A stretch of DNA of 42,467 bases from Buttiauxella warmboldiae (GTDB lineage Bacteria > Pseudomonadota > Gammaproteobacteria > Enterobacterales > Enterobacteriaceae). The stretch spans positions 1 to 42,467 of the forward strand of contig NZ_RPOH01000023.1 in NCBI RefSeq assembly GCF_003818135.1. Direction: 5' to 3'. The position numbers and the translations under genes were made by a program. Below, piece by piece: positions 1 to 12,667 of this stretch. The notes below the pieces were generated by a model. The model was not told the DNA's origin. It searched no databases and worked only from the letters and a program-made list of their open reading frames with translations. The first letter of the stretch is position 1, and each line of letters opens with the position of its first letter.

Positions 1-113
1 TACAGAAGCCACAGAGATAACCCTGCGTTCAGGTGAACGGAAAATCTGGGAAGCTTACAGATCTCACCCTTACAGATTGCCAGAGTGAGGTGCAAATTAT
101 GTATAAGAGACAG
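1..113. other. Contig-end sequence with Tn5 mosaic-end adapter remnant
   Basis: Bases 95-113 match the tagmentation mosaic end AGATGTGTATAAGAGACAG at 16 of 19 positions, including an unbroken run of 14 (100-113). Read through in the usher frame it gives the residues CIRDS, a familiar signature of adapter read-through in assembled proteins. In library geometry the genomic insert begins just after the mosaic end, at 114. Bases 1-94 hold no recognisable gene; frame 2 is open from 2 to a stop at 86-88 but resembles no chaperone C-terminus I know. They may be a chimeric fragment. Treat the segment as an artefact. Confidence 0.8.
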
Positions 114-141
114 CCAGAAAAGGCAGTATGCCCGGAAGCTT

Positions 142-2655
142 ATGCGGAATAAAAAACAACACTCCAGTGCCTTAGCCTGCTCCGCTCTCCCGCTGGCGAT
201 CTTTTCTGGCGCGCTGCTGTTCGCATTTTCTGTTCGGCAGGCACAGGCGGATGACTATTTTGATCCCGCAGCGCTGGAAATCACTCCCGGTCAGCAACAG
301 GCCAGCGATCTGAGCGACTTTTCACAGCCGGGCGGCCAGCGGCCGGGAAGCTACCGGGTTACCGTTTTCGTTAATCAACAGCAGGCTGGAGCGCGCGAGC
401 TGGAGTTTATCAGCCACAATAATCAGCTGGTACCGCTCGTGGATGTGAAGTATCTGCGTGCGCTGGGGGTGAATACGGCGGCCTTTTCCTCATTCGATAC
501 GCTTCGCGATGGGGAGTCCTTTTCCGATCTGGGAAAATATATCCCGGATGCCAGCAGTCAGTTTGACTTTGCTACCCAGCGCCTGGATTTCAGCATTCCT
601 CAGGCGGCGATGGTACGCAAAAGCCGTGGCTACGTTGCGCCGGAAAAATGGGACGAAGGGATACCAGCGGCCTTTGTCGATTACACGCTTAACGGCTCCA
701 CTACCAGCGTGGATAACCTTCACGACAGTGATAATTACCTGAACCTGCGTAGCGGGTTGAATCTTGGCGCATGGCGTCTGCGTAATTTCTCCTCTTATGA
801 ATTTAATACGACCGGGCACTGGCAGACGCAGGGCACCTCGCTTGAACGTGATATCCGCGTGCTGAAAAGCGAACTGACGCTGGGTGACTCTTATACCTCG
901 GGTGAAGTTTTCGATAGTTTTCAGTTTACCGGTATGAAACTGGCGTCCGATGAAAATATGCTGCCGGACAGCCAGAGAGGTTTTGCCCCCACGATTCGCG
1001 GCGTAGCCCACAGCAACGCCCGCATTACGGTGCGCCAGCATGGCTATGTGATTTATGAGACCTACGTTGCGCCAGGAGCTTTTGTTATTAACGATCTTTT
1101 TCCCACGGCGCAAAGCGGTGACCTGGAAGTGACTATTCGTGAAAGCGATGGTTCAGAGCGAAAATTTACCCAGCCTTATTCTGCCGTCGCCTTTATGTTG
1201 CGTGAAGGGCGCTTCAAATTTAGCGCCAGCGTGGGCCGCTACAACACTGCCGATAGCGATGGCGAGGAACCGAATTTTGTTCAGGCCTCCGCCTTTTATG
1301 GTCTTCCCTGGAGCCTGACGGCCTACGGCGGCGCGCAAATCTCAAACCATTATCAGGCGCTGGCGTTCGGACTGGGGCAGGATATTGGCGAATTCGGCTC
1401 GCTGGGCCTCGATACCACGCTGGCAAAAACGGATTTGGGCAAGGATGGGCAGTACACCGGCCAGGCGGTGCGCGCGCAGTACCAGAAAGATTTCGCCACT
1501 GTGGGCACTTCCCTGAATATCTCGGGCTACCGCTACTCTTCCCGCCGTTTTTATACCTTCGCTGAAGCCAATGAGTACCGTGACCCCGATGCACATGTCA
1601 GTAACCGCCGCAGCCGTACTGAAATGAGTCTGACCCAGGATTTTGGCAAGTGGGGGAATCTCAGCGCGGGGTTTTATCGCCAGCAGTACTGGAATACCTC
1701 TGCCGTCGACCAGACGGTGCACCTGGGTTATTACAATAGCTTCCGGGGCGTTTCGTGGAGCCTCGGATACTACGTTACCCGCTCATACTATGACGATAAA
1801 GATAATGAACGCTCCGTTAACCTTACCGTCAGCGTACCGCTAAGCCGGTGGCTGCCCGGTGGCTCGGCGAGTTACAGCCTCAACAACAACCTTGATGGCC
1901 ACACTACCCAGCAAATGTCGCTGTATGGCACCGCTCTCGATAACAGCCAGCTTAGCTATAACCTTCAGCAAGGTTTTGATAACCAGAATCATGCGGCTAA
2001 CAGCAATGTGTCACTCGATTATCGCGGTGGATTCGGAGATGTCTCGGTGGGATACAGCCACGATCGCTACAGCGACCGCCTGAACTACGGCGCTTCAGGC
2101 GGTATTGTTGCCACTCAATATGGCGTCACGCTAAGTCAGAGCCTCGGCGATACCATCGGCCTGGTGCGTGCGGATGGGACTTCTGATGTGCAGGTGGAGG
2201 GCGCCGCGAACGTCCATACCGACAGCCGGGGCTATGCGGTTATGCCCACCCTTTCTCCTTACCATGAAAATACCCTTTCACTGGATACCGAAACGTTGGG
2301 CGATGACGTTGATCTGGAGCAAAACAGCCAGACCGTTGTGCCTACCAGCGGCGCGGTGGTGCTGGCTCATTATAAAACTCACGTTGGAGCCAGGGTGCTG
2401 TTGAGCCTTAGCTGGCATGGACGGCCGCTGCCTTTTGGCACCGGCGTATTTGTGGCCGGCCAGGGAGAGGTGAAATCGAGCAAGGGTATTGTCGGGGAGA
2501 GGGGCCAGGTATACCTGAGTGGCGTTCCGCCTGAAGGCGTGGTCCATGCTCAATGGCTGCAAAACAGCCAGTCTTATCAGTGTACTGCCGCGCTGAGATT
2601 ACCGGTGGCGGCCTCCGGTAGCCCGGTGCGGCTCCTTTCGGCGCAATGCCAATAA
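142..2655 (+). CDS. Fimbrial outer-membrane usher (FimD/PapC family)
   Basis: This is the usher of a chaperone-usher fimbria: an outer-membrane beta-barrel that takes subunit-chaperone complexes from the periplasm and secretes the growing pilus. The protein is 837 aa from the ATG at 142, close to the usual 830-880. A signal peptide (basic start, hydrophobic run, cleavage near AQA/DD at about residue 36) is followed by the PapC_N domain, a long barrel/plug region and a C-terminal domain with the paired cysteines near the end. The frame is open back to 85, but residues upstream of 142 are translated from adapter sequence, so that extension is rejected. The ATG at 142 has a GGAAG only 3 nt upstream, and the true start could differ. 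The chaperone and major subunit genes expected upstream are off the contig. The adhesin gene follows after 13 nt. Confidence 0.93.
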   Translation: MRNKKQHSSALACSALPLAIFSGALLFAFSVRQAQADDYFDPAALEITPGQQQASDLSDFSQPGGQRPGSYRVTVFVNQQQAGARELEFISHNNQLVPLVDVKYLRALGVNTAAFSSFDTLRDGESFSDLGKYIPDASSQFDFATQRLDFSIPQAAMVRKSRGYVAPEKWDEGIPAAFVDYTLNGSTTSVDNLHDSDNYLNLRSGLNLGAWRLRNFSSYEFNTTGHWQTQGTSLERDIRVLKSELTLGDSYTSGEVFDSFQFTGMKLASDENMLPDSQRGFAPTIRGVAHSNARITVRQHGYVIYETYVAPGAFVINDLFPTAQSGDLEVTIRESDGSERKFTQPYSAVAFMLREGRFKFSASVGRYNTADSDGEEPNFVQASAFYGLPWSLTAYGGAQISNHYQALAFGLGQDIGEFGSLGLDTTLAKTDLGKDGQYTGQAVRAQYQKDFATVGTSLNISGYRYSSRRFYTFAEANEYRDPDAHVSNRRSRTEMSLTQDFGKWGNLSAGFYRQQYWNTSAVDQTVHLGYYNSFRGVSWSLGYYVTRSYYDDKDNERSVNLTVSVPLSRWLPGGSASYSLNNNLDGHTTQQMSLYGTALDNSQLSYNLQQGFDNQNHAANSNVSLDYRGGFGDVSVGYSHDRYSDRLNYGASGGIVATQYGVTLSQSLGDTIGLVRADGTSDVQVEGAANVHTDSRGYAVMPTLSPYHENTLSLDTETLGDDVDLEQNSQTVVPTSGAVVLAHYKTHVGARVLLSLSWHGRPLPFGTGVFVAGQGEVKSSKGIVGERGQVYLSGVPPEGVVHAQWLQNSQSYQCTAALRLPVAASGSPVRLLSAQCQ

Positions 2656-2668
2656 TCACAGGTGAATT

Positions 2669-3742
2669 ATGTTGCGAATTTTCCAGGCGCTACTGCTGCT
2701 GGTGACGGCCAGTCTGTTTATCCCTTCCACGGCCGTAGCCGGGCAGCTCTGCCCACCGACGATGAATGACGCGGTGATTAACTTTCAGAACTACTCGATT
2801 ACCGACTACCCCACGCTGCCGCCTGGCTCGATGTTGTCAGGCGCAATCCTTGGGCAGGAGAACCGCTCATTTTATAATTGCCCCACGGGGACAGGCCCGG
2901 TGGTGATGCGCTTTGTGGCGAATAAGCTGTTACATGTCGCCGGGGTCAGTGGCGTGACGCCAAACGGTGTGGGATCGCCGGCATCGGTATATGAAATCCC
3001 TGATATTCCGGGCGTTGGCTTTGCCGTGGGAGTCAGGGAAACCACCCACTGCGCGGGTAACCCGGTGCATTACATTGCCTCTGGTGATGAAGATGTCGCG
3101 GTTTGCAGCACTGACGATCCGGTGCAAATGGCAACCCAGTTCTTCGTCGTGTTTTATAAGACGGCGCAGGAAGTGGCTTACGATCGGCCCAACAGCGGCC
3201 AGATTAATGCCGGAACGCTGATCCTCCAGGACAGCAACGGCAATATCATTTCCGCAGCCGGGGTTACAGTCAATGTTGCCGCCGCCGATCTGAAAGTGCA
3301 TCGCGCAAGCTGCTATGTTTCTGATAACGACATTACCGTTGCTATGGGGCAGACCAGCGTCAGCGATCTCAATAATGGCGCTGAGGGGGCAAAACACCAT
3401 TTCACCATCCCGCTGACCTGTGAGAGCAGCCAAAACAATGCCGTGAAAATGGGTTTTTATGGCCCATCGGAAAAAGACGCCGTCAACCATGATGTGCTGA
3501 CGTTAAGCCAGCAGGAAGGTGCGGCCACCGGGGTCGGCATTCGAATAACCTATGGTGACAATTACGGCGCCGTGGCAGGAAATACGGTGCCGTTAAACAG
3601 TACCAATGTTCAGCCCTTTCCAGACAGCGCCAGTCAGGCGCAGCTGAATCTGCAATATGATGCGCAGTATGTCAAAACGGGTGCCCGGGCCACCGCCGGG
3701 CAGGCGGACAGTCTGGCGACTTTTAGCCTGATATATAATTGA
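2669..3742 (+). CDS. Fimbrial tip adhesin / minor subunit
   Basis: This is a 357-aa secreted protein, probably the tip adhesin of the same fimbria. It has a signal peptide (about residues 1-24, ending TAVAG), a variable N-terminal half with several cysteines (about 28-200) and a C-terminal pilin domain (about 213-357). The pilin domain starts at a cysteine in a CYVSDNDITVAMG stretch, has a second cysteine in PLTCESS and ends in the typical subunit terminus FSLIYN, which the chaperone would cap. Its length and two-domain shape match FimH-like adhesins rather than the roughly 180-aa major subunits. The start has AGGTGA a few bases upstream. It is the last gene of the operon and is followed by a terminator. 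The receptor cannot be inferred. Confidence 0.85.
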   Translation: MLRIFQALLLLVTASLFIPSTAVAGQLCPPTMNDAVINFQNYSITDYPTLPPGSMLSGAILGQENRSFYNCPTGTGPVVMRFVANKLLHVAGVSGVTPNGVGSPASVYEIPDIPGVGFAVGVRETTHCAGNPVHYIASGDEDVAVCSTDDPVQMATQFFVVFYKTAQEVAYDRPNSGQINAGTLILQDSNGNIISAAGVTVNVAAADLKVHRASCYVSDNDITVAMGQTSVSDLNNGAEGAKHHFTIPLTCESSQNNAVKMGFYGPSEKDAVNHDVLTLSQQEGAATGVGIRITYGDNYGAVAGNTVPLNSTNVQPFPDSASQAQLNLQYDAQYVKTGARATAGQADSLATFSLIYN

Positions 3743-3755
3743 TATTTATCTAAAA

Positions 3756-3785
3756 AATAAGGCCAGAACTTGTTCTGGCCTTATT
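3756..3785 (+). terminator. Terminator of the fimbrial operon
   Basis: A perfect 14-bp inverted repeat (3756-3769 and 3772-3785, TT between) lies 13 nt after the adhesin stop. Its arms begin with AATAA and end with TTATT, so it has A-rich and T-rich flanks on both sides and could work in both directions. It separates the fimbrial operon from the AT-rich island. Confidence 0.85.
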
Positions 3786-4128: not shown

Positions 4129-4150
4129 TTGTGTGATTGAATGCACAAAA
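4129..4150 (+). promoter_or_regulatory. CRP-binding site upstream of the PTS operon
   Basis: TGTGA (4132-4136), six bases, then GCACA (4143-4147) matches the CRP core TGTGA-N6-TCACA at 9 of 10 positions. It lies inside a wider inverted repeat TTTTGTG-N10-CACAAAA. The site centre (4139.5) is about 58 bp upstream of the start predicted from the -10 TATAGT at 4186-4191, close to the -61.5 spacing of class I CRP promoters. It indicates catabolite activation of the operon. Confidence 0.75.
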
Positions 4151-4164
4151 AATACACTATGGGA

Positions 4165-4191
4165 TTGAAGAGTCAGTACATAAGGTATAGT
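4165..4191 (+). promoter_or_regulatory. Putative sigma70 promoter of the PTS operon
   Basis: TTGAAG (4165-4170) and TATAGT (4186-4191) are separated by 15 bp, a short spacer that fits a weak, CRP-dependent promoter. Transcription would start near 4198, just upstream of the GntR-type operator. An alternative -10, TACATA at 4216-4221 inside the operator, cannot be excluded. Confidence 0.45.
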
Positions 4192-4208
4192 TTTTAAATC
4201 ACTTGCAC

Positions 4209-4230
4209 ATGGTTGTACATAGACAACCAT
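4209..4230. promoter_or_regulatory. Operator for the island's GntR-family repressor
   Basis: ATGGTTGT-ACATAG-ACAACCAT is a perfect 8-bp inverted repeat with a 6-bp centre, just downstream of the predicted start of the PTS operon. A related element, sharing the pattern CTTG-N2-CAT-N-GTTGTA-N-ATAGA, lies at 9249-9275 over the -10 of the GntR gene. The TTGTA-ATA core resembles operators of HutC/UTRA-type GntR proteins. Assignment to this regulator rests on the shared sequence in both promoters. Confidence 0.75.
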
Positions 4231-4284
4231 GACTGATAGTGGATATGTACTATTTAGCACTTAAACAGGAAATTAAGGTGTTTT

Positions 4285-4749
4285 ATGTCAATTGCAGCCA
4301 GTTTTGATACTCAATTTATCTTACTAAAACATCCTAAGATTGGACGCCTTGAGCTGTTTGATGAAATTAATACTCTGCTAATTAATGAGAATATTGTTCA
4401 ACCTACTTATCTGAATGCGCTTATAGCTCGTGAAGATGAACATCCGACTGCGATGCAGCTGGAAAAAATCGGAGTGGCTATCCCGCACGTTGATATTGAG
4501 CATGTTCAGAAGGAAAAAGTTGTTGTTGTAACTAGCCCGGAAGGAATCGAGTTTAATCAGGCGGAAGATCCAGAATTAACAATGAAAGTTCATGTCATCT
4601 TTTTCTTATTACTAAAAGAAAAAGATGCACATCTTGAATTTCTTATGAAGCTGATTGGTCTGTTTAGACAGACAGATAAAATGGATTTAATTATGGCATC
4701 GGGGTCTGCTGAAGAAGTTAAAGCGATACTTACTGCCACGTTAAAGTAG
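4285..4749 (+). CDS. PTS EIIA component, galactitol type
   Basis: This 154-aa cytoplasmic protein is the EIIA of a sugar phosphotransferase system. It takes phosphate from HPr and passes it to EIIB. It has the fold and length of the fructose/mannitol/galactitol EIIA group, and the phosphorylated histidine is His68 in the motif GVAIPHVD, matching the IPH motif of GatA. The start has an AAGG ribosome site 8-9 nt upstream. The order IIA-IIB-IIC as three separate genes is the same as gatABC. It is the first gene of the operon, directly behind the CRP site and GntR operator. Base composition is AT-rich throughout, unlike the flanking core genes. Confidence 0.9.
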   Translation: MSIAASFDTQFILLKHPKIGRLELFDEINTLLINENIVQPTYLNALIAREDEHPTAMQLEKIGVAIPHVDIEHVQKEKVVVVTSPEGIEFNQAEDPELTMKVHVIFFLLLKEKDAHLEFLMKLIGLFRQTDKMDLIMASGSAEEVKAILTATLK

Positions 4750-4792
4750 TCCCTACATTATAAAACATAAACTTTTGTATCCGGAGAGCCCT

Positions 4793-5074
4793 ATGAATAA
4801 GAAAATTATTTTTGCTTGTACAAGTGGAATTGCAACGTCAGCTGTCGCAACCGAGAAAGTCGTTCAATACTGCAAAAGTCACGGTATTAATGTGGATGCA
4901 ATTCAGTCGAATATCGGAACTATTGCTCAACAGGATGAAATGGCTGACATTATTATTGTCACCTCAGCAGTGAAAATGGAATTAAAAACACCAATTCTCA
5001 ATGGCCTACCTCTGTTAACTGGTTTTGGCGAAGAAGAATTACTAGAAAAAATCGTCGCTATCCTTAAAAAATAA
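4793..5074 (+). CDS. PTS EIIB component, galactitol type
   Basis: This 93-aa cytoplasmic EIIB takes phosphate from EIIA on a cysteine and hands it to the sugar bound by EIIC. The phospho-cysteine is Cys9, at the end of the first beta strand in FACTSGIATSAVATEK, which fits the lactose/cellobiose/galactitol IIB P-loop (GatB has a similar C-G-x-A-x-A-T-S loop). The frame is open from 4775, but the ATG at 4793 sits behind a GGAGAG ribosome site and gives the normal IIB length, so it is preferred. The gene lies 43 nt after EIIA and 11 nt before EIIC. Confidence 0.9.
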   Translation: MNKKIIFACTSGIATSAVATEKVVQYCKSHGINVDAIQSNIGTIAQQDEMADIIIVTSAVKMELKTPILNGLPLLTGFGEEELLEKIVAILKK

Positions 5075-5085
5075 AGGTACATAGC

Positions 5086-6480
5086 ATGATGGAAAAAATG
5101 TATTCCGCTGTTCAGTTTATTCTGGGGCTCGGGCCAACAATCATGTTGCCGATTATTATTTTTATAATGGCAATATGTTTGCAAACAGGGTTTAGTCGGG
5201 CATTACGGTCCGCATTAACCATTGGCATGGGTTTTATTGGTATATTTTTAGTTTTCGGATTGCTTGTTGATACCTTAGGACCAGCAGCAAAAGCGATGGT
5301 TAACCATACTGGTATCGATCTCCCTGTTGTTGACTTGGGCTGGACTCCATTGGCTGCAATAGCTTGGGCATCTCAGATTGCGCCATTTGTAGTACCAATG
5401 ACCATTGGTATTAACGTCCTTATGCTTACGCTGAACTGGACGAAAACTGTTGATATTGATGTCTGGAACTTCTGGCATTTTTCAATGGTTGGCGCAATGG
5501 TTTATGGTGTGACAGGTAGTTTCCTGTTCGGGTTGCTCATTGCAGGGGCAACAGCTGCTATTACTTTCATTATGGCAGACTGGTGTGCACCAATGATTCA
5601 GAAATACTTTAATTTACCGGGTATTTCGCTACCAACGTTATCATCTGTTATTTTCTTCCCTATCGGGGTGCTTGGTAATTTAATCCTAGATAAAGTGCCA
5701 GGGATTAACAAACTCAATGCGGATCCAGAGCAAATTCAGAAAAAATTCGGTGTTTTTGGCGAACCGATGATGCTGGGCGTGATCTTGGGTGCAGGCATAG
5801 GTTTACTGGCGGAGTATGACCTCAAAGGTGTTCTCAATCTTGCAATGAGCCTGGGGGCAGTCATGCTTATCATGCCACGTATGGTTAAACTGCTTATGGA
5901 AGGTTTGATGCCTTTGTCAGATGCCGTCAGAAGCTTCCTGCGTAAGCGTTATCCTGATCGGAATGATTTGTATATTGGTTTGGATATTGCTGTCGCAGTA
6001 GGACATCCATCAGTTCTGTCTACGGCACTGTTGTTAATTCCAGTTGGTGTATTACTTGCTGTTATTTTACCTGGAAATCGTTTACTCCCATTAGGTGATC
6101 TCGCTAATATATGGGTACCGATTTCAATGGTTGTCCTGGCATGTCGAGGTAATATTGTTCGAGCCTTTATTATCGGCATCCCGATTTTGGCTATGAATTT
6201 ATATATCGCATCTGCTGCTGCACCTATTCTTACTAAAATTGCCAAAGACATGAAATTCCCGATTAATACGGATGGTGAAATATCCAGTCTGCTGGATGGT
6301 GGCAATCCATACCGTTACTGGGCAGTAAGAGTTTTTGAAGGTAATTTCATTGCGCTGGCTTTAATTCCTGTTATCTTCTTAATGTGCTTGTGGTTATATC
6401 GTGTAACCAAAAAGCAACTTCACGAAGAAGAAGTGGCTGAGAATAATCAAAACACTACTGAACCATCGACAGTCAAATAA
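5086..6480 (+). CDS. PTS EIIC permease, galactitol (GatC) family
   Basis: This 464-aa inner-membrane protein has about ten or more hydrophobic segments and is the substrate-binding and translocating EIIC of the PTS. Length and organisation fit the GatC family, whose known substrates include galactitol and which also contains many uncharacterised polyol permeases. The polar tail (from about residue 445) is cytoplasmic. An ATG also occurs at 5089; the AAAGG site upstream suits 5086. The specific substrate cannot be read from the sequence. A strong hairpin follows the stop codon. Confidence 0.92.
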   Translation: MMEKMYSAVQFILGLGPTIMLPIIIFIMAICLQTGFSRALRSALTIGMGFIGIFLVFGLLVDTLGPAAKAMVNHTGIDLPVVDLGWTPLAAIAWASQIAPFVVPMTIGINVLMLTLNWTKTVDIDVWNFWHFSMVGAMVYGVTGSFLFGLLIAGATAAITFIMADWCAPMIQKYFNLPGISLPTLSSVIFFPIGVLGNLILDKVPGINKLNADPEQIQKKFGVFGEPMMLGVILGAGIGLLAEYDLKGVLNLAMSLGAVMLIMPRMVKLLMEGLMPLSDAVRSFLRKRYPDRNDLYIGLDIAVAVGHPSVLSTALLLIPVGVLLAVILPGNRLLPLGDLANIWVPISMVVLACRGNIVRAFIIGIPILAMNLYIASAAAPILTKIAKDMKFPINTDGEISSLLDGGNPYRYWAVRVFEGNFIALALIPVIFLMCLWLYRVTKKQLHEEEVAENNQNTTEPSTVK

Positions 6481-6490
6481 TATCTTCTAA

Positions 6491-6517
6491 TTGATGCAGC
6501 ATACTATGCTGCATCAA
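6491..6517 (+). terminator. Intercistronic hairpin between EIIC and the kinase
   Basis: TTGATGCAGCATA and TATGCTGCATCAA form a perfect 13-bp inverted repeat around a single C, 11 nt after the EIIC stop. It is followed by ATAAAAAATC rather than a T run, so it looks less like a strong terminator and more like a partial terminator or an mRNA-stabilising hairpin. It could lower kinase expression relative to the PTS genes. Confidence 0.6.
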
Positions 6518-6561
6518 ATAAAAAATCATAATTCATCCCTTAAATAAAGAAGGGGAACATA

Positions 6562-8076
6562 ATGTTTACCATAGGTATTGATATTGGTACGACCAATTGC
6601 AAAGTATGTTTGTTTAGTACACCTGAATTCGAATTAGTTGATCAATATAGTTTTAAAACACCCAAATTAGTTCATGGACAGAACACTGATTTTGATATTG
6701 AACTTATTTGGAAGGGTACGTTGTATGGACTTAACAAGTTATCATCATCTTTGCATGCAGCTTGTATTTCGGTCAGTGCTATTGCAGTAGCTAGTGTAGG
6801 TGAGGCTGGCGTATTACTAGATGATAAAGACAAGCCAATTGGCCCGACATTAACTTGGTACGATACTCGTCCAAAAACACAATTAAATAAAATAATAGAT
6901 GTATTAGGTGTTGAGAATATTTATAGTATAACCGGTATACCAGCTCACTCAAATTATAGTGTGAATAAAATTAAATGGTTACAAGATAATATTTCAGCTG
7001 CTAAGGATGGATGTAAATGGCTATGTCTCGCAGAATATATAGCCTTCAGACTATCCGGTGAGAAACGCTCAGAATATTCCCTCGCTTCAAGAACGATGGC
7101 ACTTAATCTGGAAGAAAAAACATGGGATACAGAACTTCTTACCAAAATCGAAATACCGCCAGAAATGTTCAGTCCTCTGGTATATGCAGGGGCTGCTATT
7201 GGGACACTAACCCGGGAAGTTGCTGAACTAACGGGGCTGTCGACTTCGACTTCCGTTGCAATTGCTGGCCATGATCATATGTGTGGTTCAGTAGCGGTTG
7301 GGTTGAATAATAAAGAGCAGATTCTTAACTCTACCGGCACGACTGAGGGCTTGTTAGTCGTTACAGAACATACGAACACTTCACAAGAATTCTTTAAGGC
7401 ACGGGTTTCCAATGGCGTTCATGTCCTGGAAGGATTCCATTCTCTTTATGCATCCTTACCATCAGCTGGTTATGCAATTGAATGGTTTAGAACATTATTT
7501 GAAATGGATATGCCCTCGTTTCTTCGACTGGTTGATACCCTCAATGAACAGAATGAAGATGATTCCGCGGCAAACCTGGACGGGATTTTTATTCCTCATT
7601 TAAGAGGGAGCGGTCCTCCTGAACGAAACACCTGGTCGAAAGCTTTACTGTATGGAATGGATGATAAATCGCGACCTGAAGAAATATTACGTTTCATTTT
7701 TCAGGGACTTTGTTTCGAACTCCGCAATTTACTTGATTCTTACGAAGCGCTTACTGGAAGACATTATCCTGTTATTAATGTTATTGGGGCCGCCTGTAAA
7801 AATCCATACTGGTTACAGCTTAAAGCTACCATTCTGAATCGAGAAGTTGTCGCCTGCAATATTGAAGAAGCTGTGAGTCGTGGGGCTGCAATGCTCGCTG
7901 CAAAAGCTGTGGGCTTTGATTTGACCCAGACAAAAAATACTTCAGAAGAAATGCTGAAACGTTATGTGCCAGATTCAGATGAAGTCAGTCGCTTTGATGC
8001 TTTATATCAAGATCTTTATAAACCGCTTTATGAATCCAAGATGCTTGTTGAGCGTCGCTGTTATGGGGAAAGCTAA
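6562..8076 (+). CDS. FGGY-family carbohydrate kinase
   Basis: This 504-aa cytoplasmic kinase belongs to the FGGY family (xylulokinase, ribulokinase, glycerol kinase and relatives). The N-terminal ATPase lobe opens with GIDIGTTNCKV, the phosphate-1 motif. The catalytic base is most likely Asp238 in GHDH, followed by the adenine-binding lobe with NSTGTTEG and, near the end, a conserved GAACKNPYW segment. It is nearest in appearance to xylulokinase-like members, but substrate is not predictable within this family. The start has a strong GAAGGGGA ribosome site. The stop codon overlaps the next start as TAATG, implying translational coupling with the dehydrogenase. An FGGY kinase next to a PTS is unusual because the PTS already phosphorylates its sugar. 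Confidence 0.9.
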   Translation: MFTIGIDIGTTNCKVCLFSTPEFELVDQYSFKTPKLVHGQNTDFDIELIWKGTLYGLNKLSSSLHAACISVSAIAVASVGEAGVLLDDKDKPIGPTLTWYDTRPKTQLNKIIDVLGVENIYSITGIPAHSNYSVNKIKWLQDNISAAKDGCKWLCLAEYIAFRLSGEKRSEYSLASRTMALNLEEKTWDTELLTKIEIPPEMFSPLVYAGAAIGTLTREVAELTGLSTSTSVAIAGHDHMCGSVAVGLNNKEQILNSTGTTEGLLVVTEHTNTSQEFFKARVSNGVHVLEGFHSLYASLPSAGYAIEWFRTLFEMDMPSFLRLVDTLNEQNEDDSAANLDGIFIPHLRGSGPPERNTWSKALLYGMDDKSRPEEILRFIFQGLCFELRNLLDSYEALTGRHYPVINVIGAACKNPYWLQLKATILNREVVACNIEEAVSRGAAMLAAKAVGFDLTQTKNTSEEMLKRYVPDSDEVSRFDALYQDLYKPLYESKMLVERRCYGES

Positions 8077-9110
8077 TGAAAGCCAGTGTTTATTACAGCA
8101 AGAACGACATTCGTTACCAAGATATTGAACAACCGGAAATTGGTGACGGTGACATTCTGATTAAGATGAAATCTTGCGGATTATGTGGAACCGATATTCA
8201 TAAGGCTCAGCATCAAACAGTTACAGGACCAATTATCCTGGGTCATGAAGTTGCCGGTGAAGTAGTCAAGATTGGGAAAAATGTGATCCGCTATGGCGTA
8301 GGTGAGCGAGTGGTAACTGCAATTCATGTACCTTGCTTTAATTGCCACTATTGTGATCGTGGATATTTTACGATGTGCGATCAGTTCAAGAAAACGAATC
8401 TTGAACCCGGGGGGTTCAGTGAATATATCCGCATCCCACAACTGCATGTAGAGCATTTGACACACCGTATTATTCCCGAGCTGGACTGGGACCGAGCTGC
8501 AATGATTGAGCCGGTAGCTTGCTGCCTGCATGGACTTAAATCTGCCAATATTCATGCAAAAGACAGTGTATTAGTCATGGGGTCAGGCACCATTGGTCTG
8601 GTCAGTGCCCAGCTTGCAGCGCTGAAGGGAGCATCCACCGTAATAGTTTCAGACCTCTCTCGTTATAAACGCGAATTGGCTCTGAAACTAGGCATTAACC
8701 ACGCGATTAATCCTGCAGAAGAAGATCTTGAACAGCGGGTGTCGGAAATAACAGCAGGTAAAGGGGTTGATGTAGTCATTATCGCAGCAGGTGTCTCTTC
8801 CCTTGTTACCCAGGCTGTTAACGTTGTTCGCCGTGGTGGACGAGTAATTGTATTTTCACCATTTGATAATAATCCGGTTGTTGAAATTGATGCCAGCCGT
8901 CTGTTCAGGGATGAAATATCAATTATTGGCACCTATTCTCTTACACCGTACGAAATGAAAGAAGCTATTGAAATCGTTGAGAAAGAAAAAATCAATGTCA
9001 GGGATATGATCACGCACACTTGGCCGTTATCTGACATGCATGAGGCGATCGAGTTTGCAGCAAATCCAGCCAATGATGTGCTTAAAGTGATTATTAAGGC
9101 AGAAGAATAG
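8076..9110 (+). CDS. Zinc-dependent medium-chain dehydrogenase (sorbitol/threonine dehydrogenase-like)
   Basis: This 344-aa NAD(P)-dependent medium-chain dehydrogenase probably oxidises a polyol or polyol phosphate to a ketose. The catalytic zinc ligands are visible as Cys37 (GLCGTD) and His57-Glu58 (GHE). The structural zinc loop has Cys87, Cys90, Cys93 and Cys101 in the standard x2-x2-x7 spacing. A Rossmann motif follows in VMGSGTIGL (about residue 165 on). The start overlaps the kinase stop by one base. It ends the first transcript and is followed by an inverted repeat. It is only distantly similar to the second dehydrogenase at 11422, so the two are not a recent duplication and probably act on different intermediates. 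Confidence 0.9.
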   Translation: MKASVYYSKNDIRYQDIEQPEIGDGDILIKMKSCGLCGTDIHKAQHQTVTGPIILGHEVAGEVVKIGKNVIRYGVGERVVTAIHVPCFNCHYCDRGYFTMCDQFKKTNLEPGGFSEYIRIPQLHVEHLTHRIIPELDWDRAAMIEPVACCLHGLKSANIHAKDSVLVMGSGTIGLVSAQLAALKGASTVIVSDLSRYKRELALKLGINHAINPAEEDLEQRVSEITAGKGVDVVIIAAGVSSLVTQAVNVVRRGGRVIVFSPFDNNPVVEIDASRLFRDEISIIGTYSLTPYEMKEAIEIVEKEKINVRDMITHTWPLSDMHEAIEFAANPANDVLKVIIKAEE

Positions 9111-9123
9111 TTTTTACGGGAAA

Positions 9124-9150
9124 TGCAGGAAGTGCATGCACCTTCCTGCA
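9124..9150 (+). terminator. Hairpin after the first dehydrogenase
   Basis: TGCAGGAA (9124-9131) and TTCCTGCA (9143-9150) are complementary, with an inner GTGC-AT-GCAC that extends the stem past a one-base bulge. It lies 14 nt after the stop. There is no T tract, so termination efficiency is uncertain. It is the likely end of the PTS-kinase-dehydrogenase transcript. Confidence 0.55.
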
Positions 9151-9239
9151 ACTCCGGCAGGTTGTGCTGAATGAAAAACAGGATTCCGGTTAGAGAATGT
9201 GAACTGGATCATGCAGAAATGCTTACAAAAACGACGATG

Positions 9240-9275
9240 TTGGCGTAACTTGTGCATAGTTGTATATAGATGATC
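9240..9275 (+). promoter_or_regulatory. Promoter with overlapping operator of the GntR gene
   Basis: TTGGCG (9240-9245), a 17-bp spacer and TATATA (9263-9268) form a good sigma70 promoter. The element at 9249-9275 repeats the pattern of the PTS operator, CTTG-N2-CAT-N-GTTGTA-N-ATAGA, and covers the -10, so the repressor is probably autoregulated. A weaker CRP-like core, TGTGA-N6-TCATG (8 of 10), lies upstream at 9198-9213. Transcription would start near 9275, which rules out the in-frame ATG at 9270 as the start codon. Confidence 0.7.
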
Positions 9276-9296
9276 TACTTACCAAAGGAACCCTAT

Positions 9297-10034
9297 ATGA
9301 GCACAATACTGAAAGATTCTGAAGTTCCCTTATACCTTCAGGTTTCTGAATGGATAAGGGAGAACGTATATAAAGGTGAATTAGGTAAAGGTGACCGAAT
9401 TCCCTCAGAAAACCAGATTATGGAGTTGTTGCAAGTCAGTCGTGGCACCGTGAAAAAAGCGGTAACGATGCTGGTTAATGAAGGGATGCTGATTCAGGTA
9501 CAGGGCAAAGGTACTTTCGTAAAGAACGAGAATATTTCCTATTCTTTGGGCGCTGGTTTGCTGTCGTTTGCTGAGTCACTCGAAAGTCAGCATCTGGATT
9601 ACTCCACCGAAATGATTACATCTCGTGTTGAGCAGGCGTCGAAAAATGTGGCTGAAAAGTTAAAAATTGAGGCTGGTTCGCCCATTTTATACCTTGAGCG
9701 TGTACGTAGTGTTGAAGGTGAGCGGGTCATGTTGATTGAAAACCGCATAAATATGGCATTGTGCCCCGGCATTGAATCAGTCGATTTTAATACTCAGAAC
9801 TTGTTTCCAACCATTGAGAAACTTTCAGGAAGAAGTATCAGTTTTTCTGAAAGTCGCTATGCCGCAAAAATTGTCGGAAGTGAGCGAGGTCATTATCTCG
9901 AAGTTAGTGAGGACGCCCCTGTTTTACATCTTCAGCAGCTTGTTTTCTTTGAAAAAGATCTCCCGGTTGAGTTCGGAAATGTCTGGCTCAAATCGGATAA
10001 ATACTATTTAGGTACTGTACTCCAACGACGATAG
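9297..10034 (+). CDS. GntR-family transcriptional regulator with UTRA domain (HutC subfamily)
   Basis: This 245-aa regulator is probably the local repressor. An N-terminal winged helix-turn-helix (about residues 9-75, with PLYLQVSEWIRE, IPSENQIMELLQVSRGTVKKA and GKGTFV) precedes a C-terminal UTRA ligand-binding domain (about 100-240, with LYLERVRSVEG, VMLIENRINM and FGNVWLKSD). UTRA domains commonly bind sugar phosphates, which would suit induction by a PTS product. The ATG at 9297 is chosen over 9270 because an AAGGAA site precedes it and 9270 lies within the promoter/operator. It heads a transcript with the aldolase (11 nt downstream) and HPr. Galactitol operons of E. coli use a DeoR-type repressor instead, so this is a different regulatory design. 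Confidence 0.93.
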   Translation: MSTILKDSEVPLYLQVSEWIRENVYKGELGKGDRIPSENQIMELLQVSRGTVKKAVTMLVNEGMLIQVQGKGTFVKNENISYSLGAGLLSFAESLESQHLDYSTEMITSRVEQASKNVAEKLKIEAGSPILYLERVRSVEGERVMLIENRINMALCPGIESVDFNTQNLFPTIEKLSGRSISFSESRYAAKIVGSERGHYLEVSEDAPVLHLQQLVFFEKDLPVEFGNVWLKSDKYYLGTVLQRR

Positions 10035-10045
10035 AGGAAAATGTT

Positions 10046-10906
10046 ATGCCATTAGTAAACGGTAAAATCCTGCTCGACCGTATTCGTGAAAAACATGTAC
10101 TGGCCGGAGCATTTAATACGACTAACCTGGAGACAACCATCTCTATTCTGAACGCAATTGAACGTTCCGGGTTACCAAATTTCATTCAGATTGCACCGAC
10201 TAATGCCCAGTTGTCTGGCTATGATTATATTTACGAAATCGTTAAACGCCATGCTGACAAAATGGATGTTCCGGTAAGCTTACATTTAGATCATGGAAAG
10301 ACATTAGACGATGTTAAGCAGGCTGTCCGGGCCGGATTTACTTCCGTTATGATTGATGGCGCAGCGTTCTCTTTTGAAGAGAACATCGAGTTTACACGTG
10401 AAGCGGTGGACTTCTGTAAATCCTTTGGTGTACCAGTTGAAGCAGAGCTGGGTGCAATCCTTGGAAAAGAAGATGACCATGTCAGTGAAGCAGACTGCAA
10501 GACTGAGCCTGAAAAAGTAAAAGCTTTTGTTGATCGATCGGGTTGTGACTTACTTGCTGTTTCTGTAGGAAATGTGCATGGTCTCGAAGACATCCCTCGC
10601 ATAGATATTCCGCTGCTTAAACGTATTGCTGAAGTGTCTCCTGTCCCCCTGGTGATACATGGCGGGTCAGGAATTGCAGAGGATATTATCCGGAGTTTTG
10701 TCAATTATAATGTCGTAAAAGTCAATATTGCCAGTGACTTGCGTAAAGCTTTCATCACCGCTGTTGGTAAGGCATATAACAACGACAATAATGAAGCCAA
10801 TTTGGCTCGGGTCATGGCATCAGCAAAAATGGCTGTTGAGGATGATGTTTATTCGAAAATCCTGATGATGAATAAAGGCCATCAGCAATTACGTAAAGCT
10901 TCCTGA
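10046..10906 (+). CDS. Class II ketose-bisphosphate-type aldolase (GatY/KbaY/IolJ group)
   Basis: This 286-aa zinc-dependent class II aldolase splits a ketose phosphate or bisphosphate into dihydroxyacetone phosphate and an aldehyde. The catalytic Asp82 and zinc ligand His83 are in LHLDHG, the same numbering as tagatose-bisphosphate aldolases. Other family motifs are VEAELG (about 132), the zinc histidine in VGNVHG, HGGSG (phosphate binding) and VNIASDL near the usual NIATEL position. GatY and KbaY need the accessory subunit GatZ/KbaZ for full activity, and no such gene is present. IolJ and other single-subunit members do not need one. Whether the substrate is tagatose bisphosphate, another bisphosphate or a ketose 1-phosphate is open. 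A GAGGA ribosome site overlaps the region just after the GntR stop. Confidence 0.9.
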   Translation: MPLVNGKILLDRIREKHVLAGAFNTTNLETTISILNAIERSGLPNFIQIAPTNAQLSGYDYIYEIVKRHADKMDVPVSLHLDHGKTLDDVKQAVRAGFTSVMIDGAAFSFEENIEFTREAVDFCKSFGVPVEAELGAILGKEDDHVSEADCKTEPEKVKAFVDRSGCDLLAVSVGNVHGLEDIPRIDIPLLKRIAEVSPVPLVIHGGSGIAEDIIRSFVNYNVVKVNIASDLRKAFITAVGKAYNNDNNEANLARVMASAKMAVEDDVYSKILMMNKGHQQLRKAS

Positions 10907-10929
10907 TTTATTTTGATGCTGAGACGATT

Positions 10930-11199
10930 ATGATCAAGCAAAGTGTGAAGGTAGTTAACAGTACAGGGTTACACGCTCGACCAGCTGCAACACTGGCAAA
11001 AATTATCAAAAAATACGATTCATCACTAACCTTAATTAATAATGGAAAGGAAATTGAAATTAAGGGCATGATGAGTATTTTGGGGGCCGGTGTAAAAGGT
11101 AATTCAATGATAGATCTTATCTGCAATGGCCAAGATGAGCTTGACCTTATGGATGAACTAAAAATAGCTTTTTCCAGTGGGTTCGGAGAAAAAGAGTAA
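10930..11199 (+). CDS. HPr-like PTS phosphocarrier protein
   Basis: This 89-aa HPr paralogue carries phosphate from enzyme I to EIIA. It aligns with E. coli HPr without gaps through residue 49. The phospho-acceptor His15 and its partner Arg17 are kept in TGLHARPAA. Position 46, a serine in standard HPr and the HPr-kinase target in Gram-positives, is glycine here (EIKGMMS). It lies 23 nt after the aldolase, so it is probably made with it. The general ptsH gene lies elsewhere in enterobacteria, next to ptsI, so this is a dedicated extra HPr. It may feed the EIIA at 4285, but enzyme I would have to come from the host. Confidence 0.9.
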   Translation: MIKQSVKVVNSTGLHARPAATLAKIIKKYDSSLTLINNGKEIEIKGMMSILGAGVKGNSMIDLICNGQDELDLMDELKIAFSSGFGEKE

Positions 11200-11421
11200 C
11201 CATATTTAATTTTTTCTAACCTCTCATTAATTATAGCTGTTATGGCGAAGGCACGCTGTACTCCTTAGTATATTAAGGTTGGTTAGCGTATTTTGTTTTT
11301 CAATGAAATGGTGTTTTTCGTAACAACGTCGCCTTCGTCAAGTTTTAATAAATCCGAAACACTGTAATTATAGGTATTCCTACAGAGCTCAACTAATCAT
11401 GATTTTCTGAGGAGATCATCA

Positions 11422-12483
11422 TTGAAAGCATTAAACCTTTATTCAAAACAAGATGTCAGGTTTGAAGACGTTGATATTCCAGAAATTGAATCTCCTGATG
11501 AGATCCTGATAAAAGTTAAAGTCGCGGGAATATGCGGTTCAGATATATCACGTTTCGGTAAATTAGGTTCTTATCAACCGGGACTCACTTGGGGGCATGA
11601 ATTTTCGGGTGTCGTTGCCAAAAGAGGGGATGCTGTAAGCTCTATAGACATTGGTGATCGAGTCACAGCCTGTAACTGCTTTCCATGCAACGAATGCAAC
11701 TACTGTAAAAAAGGCATGTACTCACGTTGTAATAATTTGAGGGTCTTAGGTGGACATAAGAAAGGTGCATTCGCAGAGTTTATTAAAGTTCCGGTTGCTA
11801 ACGTTGTAAAAATCCCTTCAACAATGGATTTCGAGACAGCAAGTTTTATCGAACCTTCAAGCGTAGTAGCCCATGGATACAATCAACTTAAGATCAAGAA
11901 AGGTAGCAGTATTGCTGTTGTAGGTTGTGGGACAATTGGTTTACTTGCCGTTCAATGGGCAAAGATCTATGGGGCGAGTGAAGTATTTGCTTTTGATACT
12001 GATACAGGAAAGCTAGATATTGCGCTTCAGACTGGTGCTCATCATGGTATATGTGCCAATAAAGATAATTATCTACAATATTTTATGGCAATGACTGAAA
12101 ATGCTGGAGTAGATGTTGTTATTGAATGCTCCGGTAGTGCTGTTGGTATTTCTACCGCCTTGATGCTGGCTAAAAAAGGTGGAACAGTACTGTTGCTTGG
12201 CATCCCCTATGGAGATGTGTCATTTCCACGTGAGAGTTTCGAGAAAATAATCCGTAACGAACTTACTGTAGCAGGTTCCTGGAATTCTCTTTCGGCCCCC
12301 TTCCCTGGAGATGAATGGAGGACCTCTCTACATTATCTGAGCTCAGGGGATATCAATGTAAAACCCTTGATCACAAGGCGAATCGCCATGGCTGAAGCAC
12401 CCTCTGTATTCCCCAAACTCTATAATCGAGAAGAATTTTTCGTTAAAGTACTTATTTGCATGGTTAATAAAAATGATAATTAA
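11422..12483 (+). CDS. Zinc-dependent dehydrogenase, galactitol-1-phosphate 5-dehydrogenase (GatD)-like
   Basis: This 353-aa medium-chain dehydrogenase resembles GatD, which oxidises galactitol 1-phosphate to tagatose 6-phosphate. The C-terminal stretch with ELTVAGSWNSLSAPFPGDEW matches the GatD pattern ELTVIGSWMNYSSPWPGQEW closely. Catalytic zinc ligands are Cys38 (GICGSD) and His59-Glu60 (GHE). The structural zinc cysteines are Cys89, Cys92, Cys95 and Cys103, and the Rossmann motif is in VGCGTIGL. The start codon is TTG at 11422, supported by TGAGGAG seven bases upstream and by the usual MKAL-type N-terminus. A 222-nt gap after HPr suggests it may have its own promoter. It is AT-rich and is the last gene of the island. 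Confidence 0.88.
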   Translation: MKALNLYSKQDVRFEDVDIPEIESPDEILIKVKVAGICGSDISRFGKLGSYQPGLTWGHEFSGVVAKRGDAVSSIDIGDRVTACNCFPCNECNYCKKGMYSRCNNLRVLGGHKKGAFAEFIKVPVANVVKIPSTMDFETASFIEPSSVVAHGYNQLKIKKGSSIAVVGCGTIGLLAVQWAKIYGASEVFAFDTDTGKLDIALQTGAHHGICANKDNYLQYFMAMTENAGVDVVIECSGSAVGISTALMLAKKGGTVLLLGIPYGDVSFPRESFEKIIRNELTVAGSWNSLSAPFPGDEWRTSLHYLSSGDINVKPLITRRIAMAEAPSVFPKLYNREEFFVKVLICMVNKNDN

Positions 12484-12606
12484 TTTATAACGATAGTGGT
12501 TTTAATATTACTAAAATATTCTCTAATAAAAATTAGTCAAAATATTAAATATTTATTACGGATAAGAATATAAAATTAGAATCATTACCACTAAAAATAG
12601 AAATAA

Positions 12607-12632
12607 AAAACTGGCTTATTAAAGCCAGTTTT
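12607..12632. terminator. Bidirectional terminator between the island and gor
   Basis: AAAACTGGCTT (12607-12617) and AAGCCAGTTTT (12622-12632) are perfectly complementary with a 4-base loop. A and T runs on both sides allow termination of the island on the plus strand and of gor on the minus strand. The composition changes from AT-rich to core-like about 40 bases to its right, so the right junction of the acquired DNA is near here. Confidence 0.85.
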
Positions 12633-12667
12633 CAGAATGAAAAAAGTGTTGAGGTAGTTTTATTATA

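What the first reader, a model, noticed from the sequence alone, without database searches (positions are those of the whole stretch)
4129..12483. Uncharacterised PTS-kinase-aldolase catabolic island with its own HPr
Seen: galactitol-type IIA/IIB/IIC, an FGGY kinase, two unrelated zinc dehydrogenases, a GntR/UTRA repressor, a class II aldolase and an HPr paralogue, all AT-rich between core-like genes. Known: the gat pathway uses GatYZABCD with a DeoR-type repressor, no FGGY kinase and no HPr. Inference: this is a pathway for a different polyol or sugar. One model is PTS import, oxidation by the GatD-like enzyme, kinase phosphorylation and aldolase cleavage to dihydroxyacetone phosphate. I recognise no described operon with this set.
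Basis: partly seen in the sequence, partly recalled or inferred. Interest (0 to 1): 0.78.

Follow-up and report, generated by a model that had tools for sequence, protein, structure and literature searches.

The report
Uncharacterised sugar-import and aldolase operon
An enterobacterium carries a nine-gene operon that probably imports an unidentified sugar alcohol and splits it for energy; a sister operon sits in about 30% of complete E. coli genomes, yet I found no study that tested what either of them feeds on.

Summary
The nine genes are real, complete and on one strand (4285-12483), in an AT-rich block (40% G+C against 54-55%). The cluster is conserved: eight further loci keep IIA-IIB-IIC-FGGY-ADH1-GntR-aldolase-HPr in this order. 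A sister operon without dehydrogenases lies between nikR and yhhJ in E. coli (1615 of 5426 complete genomes), and a third arrangement lies in another family of the order. PTS and kinase fall into two separate types (24-55% mean identity); the aldolase (79-91%) does not. All 19 type A and B operons have one site close to GTTGTnYATRnACAAC before the first gene. The 20 cluster kinases share a signature found in 0 of 15 other FGGY kinases compared. Best reading: different upper modules (type B a polyol, type A probably a ketose) feed one aldolase reaction that releases dihydroxyacetone phosphate. A PTS-linked FGGY kinase would then act on an already phosphorylated sugar, which is unusual; one aldolase position speaks against that version. 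The substrate is unknown, and ten paper searches showed no functional study; one paper reports the E. coli genes as induced in bovine gut contents and reads them as galactitol. 'Two unrelated dehydrogenases' is not borne out. New variant of a known kind.

The parts
3756..3785 (-). terminator-like hairpin (13 pairs) between the fimbrial block and the island
   Evidence: flagged on the minus strand only, and the scan as a whole is at chance level (7 found, 6.6 expected)
4132..4147 (+). CRP-like site TGTGATTGAATGCACA
   Evidence: the strict pattern (consensus recalled) occurs 122-154 bases before the first gene in 7 of 19 cluster loci
4212..4227 (.). proposed GntR operator GTTGTACATAGACAAC (inside a longer palindrome, about 4208-4231)
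   Evidence: one site with 0-1 mismatch before the first gene in 19 of 19 clusters; the only exact match in the own genome
4285..4749 (+). PTS enzyme IIA (EIIA_2)
   Evidence: PF00359 91.9 bits; NF007236 64 bits, below cut-off 139
4793..5074 (+). PTS enzyme IIB (likely ATG start; mechanical ORF from 4775)
   Evidence: PF02302 46.3 bits
5086..6480 (+). PTS enzyme IIC, galactitol (GAT) superfamily
   Evidence: PF03611 296 bits; TIGR00827 454 bits, cut-off 542
6562..8076 (+). FGGY-family kinase of a PTS-linked group
8076..9110 (+). zinc-dependent MDR dehydrogenase ADH1 (Tdh/IolM-like), overlaps the kinase stop by one base
   Evidence: in 9 of 9 type-B loci and in L088
9297..10034 (+). GntR/UTRA transcriptional regulator (likely start; mechanical ORF from 9270)
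   Evidence: PF00392 and PF07702; homologue starts
10046..10906 (+). class II aldolase of NCBIfam NF005943 (PRK07998)
   Evidence: 541 bits, cut-off 364; also over the broad ketose-bisphosphate aldolase model TIGR00167 (223, cut-off 216)
10930..11199 (+). HPr-family phosphocarrier, below the PtsH and NPr cut-offs
   Evidence: TIGR01003 75 bits (cut-off 47.9); PtsH 39 of 153, NPr 40 of 119
11422..12483 (+). zinc-dependent MDR dehydrogenase ADH2 (GatD-like), TTG start
   Evidence: (NF007642 246 bits, cut-off 550)
12606..12633 (-). terminator-like hairpin (12 pairs) between ADH2 and gor, on gor's strand
   Evidence: same caveat as the hairpin at 3756

Best explanation
This is a catabolic operon, probably spread horizontally, under a local GntR/UTRA regulator, most likely a repressor. 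Steps: (1) the dedicated HPr and IIABC import the substrate and phosphorylate it; (2) in this type (B) ADH1 oxidises the imported polyol phosphate to a ketose phosphate, with the GatD-like ADH2 as an accessory for a second polyol or redox step; (3) the FGGY kinase adds a second phosphate at the keto end (C1), as FucK and RhaB do on free ketoses; (4) the class II aldolase splits the product into dihydroxyacetone phosphate and an aldehyde, most simply glyceraldehyde 3-phosphate; (5) the regulator leaves its single operator when it binds a phosphorylated intermediate. The E. coli type (A) has the same regulator, operator and aldolase but a different PTS, a diverged kinase and no dehydrogenase, so it probably takes up a ketose directly. 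Shown: gene identities, order, conservation, the two-speed divergence (upper module type-specific, aldolase shared) and the shared operator-like sequence. Inferred: every reaction, that the regulator binds this site, the direction of regulation, and that type A's substrate is a ketose. The stereochemistry and name of the sugar are not known. The confidence is for the general scheme; for the doubly phosphorylated intermediate I would say about 0.4.
For: Same order of the first eight genes in 8 other loci, with a SurE gene added in 5 and ADH2 missing from 2. Sister operon in 10 loci read and, at 80% coverage or more, in 1615 of 5426 E. coli genomes. Of 295 sampled genomes of the family 11 (the own one included) have an aldolase over the NF005943 cut-off, and in all 11 it lies in a cluster with an FGGY kinase. 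A-B identity (min-mean-max): IIA 20-24-27, IIB 42-47-52, IIC 53-55-57, FGGY 32-35-39, GntR 64-68-71, aldolase 79-84-91; in the aldolase tree the window lies in a group with E. coli-type rows, apart from the L041-type B rows (support of that group 0.959; inner nodes weak). Operator-like site in 19 of 19. Kinase signature HSNYS / GHDHM / PHLRGSG in 20 of 20 cluster kinases and in 0 of 15 others; its His-Asp pair occurs otherwise only in the FucK- and RhaB-like rows. The aldolase keeps the HLDH, GNVHG, IHGGSG and NIAS motifs and passes a broad ketose-bisphosphate aldolase model.
Against: No FGGY kinase acting on a sugar phosphate is known to me (recalled); the main text of one survey of the FGGY family has no occurrence of PTS or phosphotransferase (term search). 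At the place where fructose- and tagatose-bisphosphate aldolases have Ser or Thr (recalled as a contact of the 6-phosphate) this aldolase has Ala50, and YdjI, annotated as a 1-phosphate aldolase, has Gly: this leans against a distal phosphate. SurE, a phosphatase family, sits in 5 of 9 type-B operons, which the scheme does not need. HPr is absent from L088. The kinase model was too poor to use (mean pLDDT 39).
Confidence: 0.5

Rival explanations
1. Dephosphorylation first: the PTS product is oxidised and stripped of its phosphate (SurE where present, host phosphatases elsewhere), and the FGGY kinase then phosphorylates the free ketose at C1; the aldolase splits a ketose 1-phosphate into DHAP and an unphosphorylated aldehyde, which a dehydrogenase may reduce.
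For: A SurE gene in 5 of 9 type-B operons (the L041 copy scores 283 bits against cut-off 233). Ala50 in place of the Ser/Thr of bisphosphate aldolases, and a GNxHG motif shared with YdjI. FGGY kinases normally take free sugars (recalled). His-Asp pair shared with FucK- and RhaB-like rows.
Against: No SurE-like gene in the other 4 type-B loci, in 10 of 10 type-A loci or in L088 within the stretches held. Wastes the PEP-derived phosphate.
Confidence: 0.27
2. A variant galactitol (or D-tagatose) operon: the substrate is galactitol or tagatose, and the aldolase is a one-subunit tagatose-bisphosphate aldolase.
For: IIC is of the GAT superfamily; ADH2 is closest to GatD; the aldolase's best PDB match is tagatose-bisphosphate aldolase AgaY. 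A transcriptome paper reads the E. coli genes as galactitol transport.
Against: IIA, IIB, IIC and ADH2 are all below the galactitol cut-offs and the aldolase is below the GatY, KbaY and tagatose-bisphosphate aldolase cut-offs; no GatZ-like gene among the nine and a GntR- rather than DeoR-type regulator (GatR type recalled); type A has no dehydrogenase like ADH1 or ADH2 in the stretches held.
Confidence: 0.13
3. Two independent uptake routes in one island: the PTS branch (with ADH2) and a kinase-ADH1 branch for a sugar brought in by another carrier, meeting at the aldolase.
For: Two gaps of 186 and 222 bases inside the cluster; ADH2 and SurE come and go.
Against: PTS genes and kinase separate into the same two types without overlap; the kinase follows IIC directly in all 20 loci; L088 keeps PTS, kinase and ADH1 without ADH2 or HPr.
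Confidence: 0.1

Closest known systems
[not shown]
   Same: GntR/UTRA, IIABC, FGGY kinase, HPr, NF005943 aldolase (89% identical to the window's); same operator-like site
   Different: No dehydrogenases; over all A-B pairs IIA 24%, IIC 55%, kinase 35% identical on average; regulator gene first; E. coli and L054 carry a diverged HPr (44-45% to the window's) before the aldolase. No functional study found in the ten searches; some of its genes reported as induced in bovine digestive contents
galactitol gat operon (gatYZABCD, gatR), E. coli K-12
   Same: PTS of the GAT superfamily, MDR dehydrogenase, class II aldolase
   Different: DeoR-type repressor (recalled), GatZ partner subunit, no kinase gene, no HPr
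E. coli ydj cluster (YdjI aldolase, YdjH kinase, YdjJ/YdjL dehydrogenases)
   Same: Kinase, class II aldolase and two zinc dehydrogenases together; GNxHG motif
   Different: No PTS or HPr gene; kinase YdjH not FGGY and regulator of another family (both recalled)
L-fucose and L-rhamnose pathways (FucK/FucA, RhaB/RhaD)
   Same: FGGY kinase making a ketose 1-phosphate for an aldolase that yields DHAP (recalled); His-Asp pair
   Different: Isomerase and symporter instead of PTS and dehydrogenase; kinases 19-22% identical; FucA and RhaD are of another aldolase family (recalled)

Membership tests
galactitol (gat) operon | galactitol-type IIA, IIB, IIC models | tested here: not met
   64/139, 62/95, 454/542 bits (score/cut-off)
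galactitol (gat) operon | GatD equivalog | tested here: not met
   ADH2 246, ADH1 145 bits against cut-off 550
galactitol (gat) operon | GatY with GatZ partner | tested here: not met
   aldolase below NF009374 (233/383) and TIGR01858 (214/444); no GatZ-like gene among the nine
galactitol (gat) operon | growth on galactitol | not testable with these tools
   needs a growth test
NF005943 (PRK07998) class II aldolase | score over curated cut-off 364 bits | tested here: met
   541 bits
TIGR00167 ketose-bisphosphate aldolase (broad subfamily) | score over curated cut-off 215.6 bits | tested here: met
   222.6 bits; a narrow pass of a broad model, no proof of substrate
FGGY carbohydrate kinase family | FGGY_N and FGGY_C domains | tested here: met
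   157.5 and 85.5 bits
xylulokinase, L-fuculokinase, rhamnulokinase, glycerol kinase, gluconokinase equivalogs | score over the equivalog cut-off | tested here: not met
   233/380, 148/471, 111/528, 152/590, 128/649 bits
FGGY kinases of E. coli K-12 | groups with one of eight K-12 kinases | tested here: not met
   the split between cluster kinases and the eight K-12 kinases has support 1.000 (unrooted FastTree; types A and B are also split from each other)
HPr of the general PTS (PtsH) | PtsH equivalog score | tested here: not met
   39 of 153 bits; the HPr family model (75, cut-off 47.9) is met
type-B operon defined here | IIA-IIB-IIC-FGGY-ADH1-GntR-aldolase-HPr in this order | tested here: met
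   9 of 9 loci including the window
type-B operon defined here | one operator-like site before the first gene | tested here: met
   9 of 9 type B, 10 of 10 type A, 0-1 mismatch; the motif was derived from these same promoters

The most novel reading that the evidence does not exclude
A new FGGY subfamily of ketose-phosphate kinases coupled to the PTS: the kinase adds a second phosphate to a PTS-made sugar phosphate, taking the place that PfkA/PfkB-type enzymes hold in the tagatose pathway, and feeds a dedicated class II aldolase. It forms the core of an exchangeable catabolic module in which import-kinase parts for different sugars or polyols are swapped onto one conserved aldolase and regulator, in enterobacteria including about 30% of complete E. 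coli genomes.
Probability: 0.4. Interest if true: 0.62.

Novelty: new variant of a known kind. Interest (0 to 1): 0.5.

Why it matters
A sister of this operon is present in 1615 of 5426 complete E. coli genomes (a collection weighted towards clinical isolates), among them O157:H7 strains, and K-12 has other genes at that site. So an apparently untested nutrient pathway is common in a very well-studied species. Knowing the sugar could explain a niche difference in the gut and would correct the present 'galactitol' and 'fuculokinase' labels. A kinase of this family working on a phosphorylated ketose would extend what FGGY enzymes are known to do. The split between type-specific upper genes and a shared aldolase makes the substrate question testable with two or three purified enzymes.

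Tried and rejected
AlphaFold model of the kinase from eight sequences: mean pLDDT 39, discarded; no fold search was run. Aldolase in viral contigs: no relative. Kinase in plasmids: 842 records with a match, all under 60% identity; the best two (35%) are E. coli records of chromosome size. Megablast of the island in E. coli: none; blastn at lower identity found the sister aldolase. Rfam: nothing over the gathering score. The vpe PTS operon of uropathogenic E. coli was considered: the passages read place it with the deoK operon, not at nikR, and it was not pursued by sequence. The same paper (PMC5382810) mentions a second PTS of NCTC 86, 98% identical to one of Sakai and of unknown function; this may be the type A operon, which I did not check. 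D-ribulose loci (Rbl, Aau): transporter loci with no mention of PTS or aldolase in the text searched, set aside. A wider GntR regulon in the own genome: 31 sites with up to 2 mismatches (1 exact, 2 with one mismatch) against 37 for the backward control, so the inexact ones are taken as chance. Galactitol as substrate: kept only as a rival. Arg348 of the kinase as a unique residue: rejected on recount, since K-12 RhaB has Arg at the aligned place. Locus L047 (kinase 23% identical) was dropped from all counts. L048 and L087 were taken as the same contigs as L044 and L046 (equal contig lengths, equal gene identities) and not counted twice; L058 (Sakai) was not added to the 10 type-A loci.

Literature: (all ten searches of the held PMC library). 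'No functional study found' means none of these showed one; subscription journals and preprints are not covered. PMC6199705, PMC12928451, PMC5382810, PMC3245297: passages only. PMC10101011: abstract and outline. PMC12307932: abstract, outline and passages. All other papers: search listing only.
Full report
WHAT IS THERE. Nine open reading frames on the + strand, 4285-12483, encode IIA, IIB, IIC, an FGGY kinase, a zinc dehydrogenase (ADH1), a GntR/UTRA regulator, a class II aldolase, an HPr and a second zinc dehydrogenase (ADH2). All have start and stop in frame; six of eight neighbours overlap or lie 11-81 bases apart, and two gaps are larger, 186 (ADH1-GntR) and 222 bases (HPr-ADH2). The terminator scan flagged no site on the + strand inside the island; its two longest hairpins, at 3756-3785 and 12606-12633, bracket the block but are flagged on the minus strand, and the scan as a whole is at chance level (7 found, 6.6 expected; promoters 19 found, 24.9 expected). 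The block has 40.2% G+C; left and right flanks have 55.2% and 54.0%. To the left are a fimbrial usher and an adhesin-like gene, to the right gor, rlmJ and prlC (names recalled from the translations). Of 12 genomes of the genus only the own one has the kinase and only the own one has the adhesin-like gene next door; gor is in 12 of 12, and in the five genus genomes read (L079-L083) its left neighbourhood holds other genes. So this is variable DNA at a changeable site.

FAMILIES. The aldolase belongs to NCBIfam NF005943 (541 bits, cut-off 364) and also passes the broad ketose-bisphosphate aldolase model TIGR00167 (222.6, cut-off 215.6). The HPr passes the general HPr model. In the rows listed the other proteins are below every cut-off: IIA, IIB and IIC against the galactitol models, the kinase against xylulokinase, fuculokinase, rhamnulokinase, glycerol kinase and gluconokinase, both dehydrogenases against GatD and threonine dehydrogenase, and the HPr against PtsH and NPr (for ADH1 and GntR only the best 25 rows were shown). 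ADH1 and ADH2 are 30.7% identical, so they are related.

RELATIVES (type B). A scan of the 84,980-species collection with the kinase gave 8 loci; 7 carry the same operon (66-70% kinase identity: Raoultella planticola, R. ornithinolytica, Raoultella sp. BIGb0138, two Enterobacter, Superficieibacter, one metagenome bin) and 1 (L047, 23%) was dropped. An eighth relative, L063, came from the family search with ADH1 (4 of 392 genomes at E <= 1e-110, own included). In all nine type-B loci the order IIA-IIB-IIC-FGGY-ADH1-GntR-aldolase-HPr is the same; ADH2 is found in 7 of 9, not in L046 or L063. A SurE gene follows HPr in 5 of 9 (L041, L042, L043, L045, L063; 72-100% identical to the L041 copy); only the L041 copy was scored against a model (283 bits, cut-off 233). 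The own genome has a single SurE, on another contig. Window, R. planticola and Superficieibacter have the operon beside a gor-like gene (by N-terminal likeness).

THIRD ARRANGEMENT. A genome of another family in the order (L088) has GntR-aldolase-IIA-IIB-IIC-FGGY-ADH1, with no HPr, ADH2 or SurE in the 19.5 kb held. Its aldolase also passes NF005943 (431 bits).

HOW RARE. Aldolases over the NF005943 cut-off occur in 11 of 295 sampled genomes of the family, own included, and all 11 lie in a cluster with an FGGY kinase. In 369 genomes drawn from the class only the own genome matched at E <= 1e-100. A kinase alignment found 3 of 295 genomes of the order at E <= 1e-60: the own one, the metagenome bin of L046 and L088's.

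TWO-SPEED EVOLUTION. Between types, mean identity is 24% (IIA), 47% (IIB), 55% (IIC), 35% (kinase), 68% (GntR), 84% (aldolase) and 63% (HPr, range 42-82). Within types the ranges do not overlap the between-type range for IIA, IIB, IIC, kinase and GntR, but they do for the aldolase (between 79-91, within 80-100) and HPr. In the aldolase tree the window lies in a group with L039, L054, L057 (type A) and L040, L044 (type B) (support 0.959), apart from the L041-type B rows; inner nodes are weak. I read this as one shared aldolase reaction fed by two different upper modules. Strong purifying selection on the aldolase alone would also give high identity; the mixed grouping is the part that argues for sharing.

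OPERATOR. A palindrome found in the promoters, GTTGTnYATRnACAAC, occurs with 0-1 mismatch shortly before the first gene in 19 of 19 type A and B clusters, with 2 further sites at two mismatches in the same 398,350 bases. The motif was derived from these promoters, so this count is not an independent test. It is the only exact match in the own genome; matches with up to 2 mismatches number 31, fewer than the backward control (37). L088, examined later, has no full palindrome within 2 mismatches but three tandem copies of a GTTGTnYAT-like half-site before its GntR gene. The first gene differs between types (IIA in B, GntR in A), so the shared site points to the shared regulator. CRP-like sites lie 122-154 bases before the first gene in 7 of 19 loci by a strict pattern.

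KINASE. The 19 kinases of types A and B have 112 invariant columns. All 20, L088 included, carry HSNYS, GHDHM and PHLRGSG; none of 15 others carries these motifs (8 of K-12 and 7 further ones of the own genome, several of them orthologues of each other). The His-Asp pair is shared only with the FucK- and RhaB-like rows, which phosphorylate the keto end (recalled). In an unrooted tree the cluster kinases split from the eight K-12 kinases with support 1.000.

ALDOLASE. The catalytic and zinc motifs are kept (HLDH at 80-83, GNVHG, IHGGSG, NIAS; roles recalled). At the loop where bisphosphate aldolases have Ser or Thr this family has Ala50-Pro-Thr-Asn, invariant in the 18 rows and kept in L088; GatY has Thr and YdjI has Gly. 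That the Ser/Thr contacts the 6-phosphate is recalled, not tested. This is evidence against the bisphosphate version of my model and is why I put the dephosphorylation rival at 0.27.

MECHANISM. The most economical scheme is given in Best explanation: import and phosphorylation, oxidation by ADH1 (type B), second phosphorylation by the FGGY kinase, cleavage to DHAP plus an aldehyde, and local repression. All reaction steps are inference from family membership and order. The substrate is not identified.

VERDICT. A real, intact, conserved and apparently uncharacterised operon of a known general kind (PTS plus kinase plus aldolase catabolism), with an unusual partner set and a distinct kinase group. 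New variant of a known kind; interest 0.5.

Noticed in passing
window 100-113: TGTATAAGAGACAG, part of the Nextera/Tn5 mosaic-end adapter (name recalled), within 115 bases of the contig start; expected 0.00 times by chance. Probably adapter carry-over in the assembly, which may also distort the start of the usher ORF at 85.
   Followed up: partly
window 85-3742: A fimbrial usher and an adhesin-like gene directly left of the island; the adhesin-like gene 2669-3742 is absent from the 11 other genus genomes searched.
   Followed up: partly
L041 14701-15483; also L042, L043, L045, L063: A second surE-like phosphatase gene placed inside the sugar operon after HPr, a setting for SurE that I do not know from the literature.
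   Followed up: partly
L039 11701-11970 and L054 8588-8857: The E. coli nikR-yhhJ operon and L054 carry a different, diverged HPr (44-45% to the window's, 83% to each other) before the aldolase, as if the HPr had been replaced or recruited anew.
   Followed up: partly
L046 14350-14634: The HPr of this metagenome bin reads GLHTRPAA instead of GLHARPAA at the active-site His.
   Followed up: no
L079-L083 (left of gor in five genus genomes): The site left of gor holds different gene sets in related genomes; in L082 and L083 they look, by eye, like another PTS with a LacI-type regulator.
   Followed up: partly
plasmid records NZ_CP134663.1 and NZ_CP141089.1: Two E. coli records of about 4.9 Mb, by size chromosomes, are filed in the plasmid collection.
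   Followed up: no
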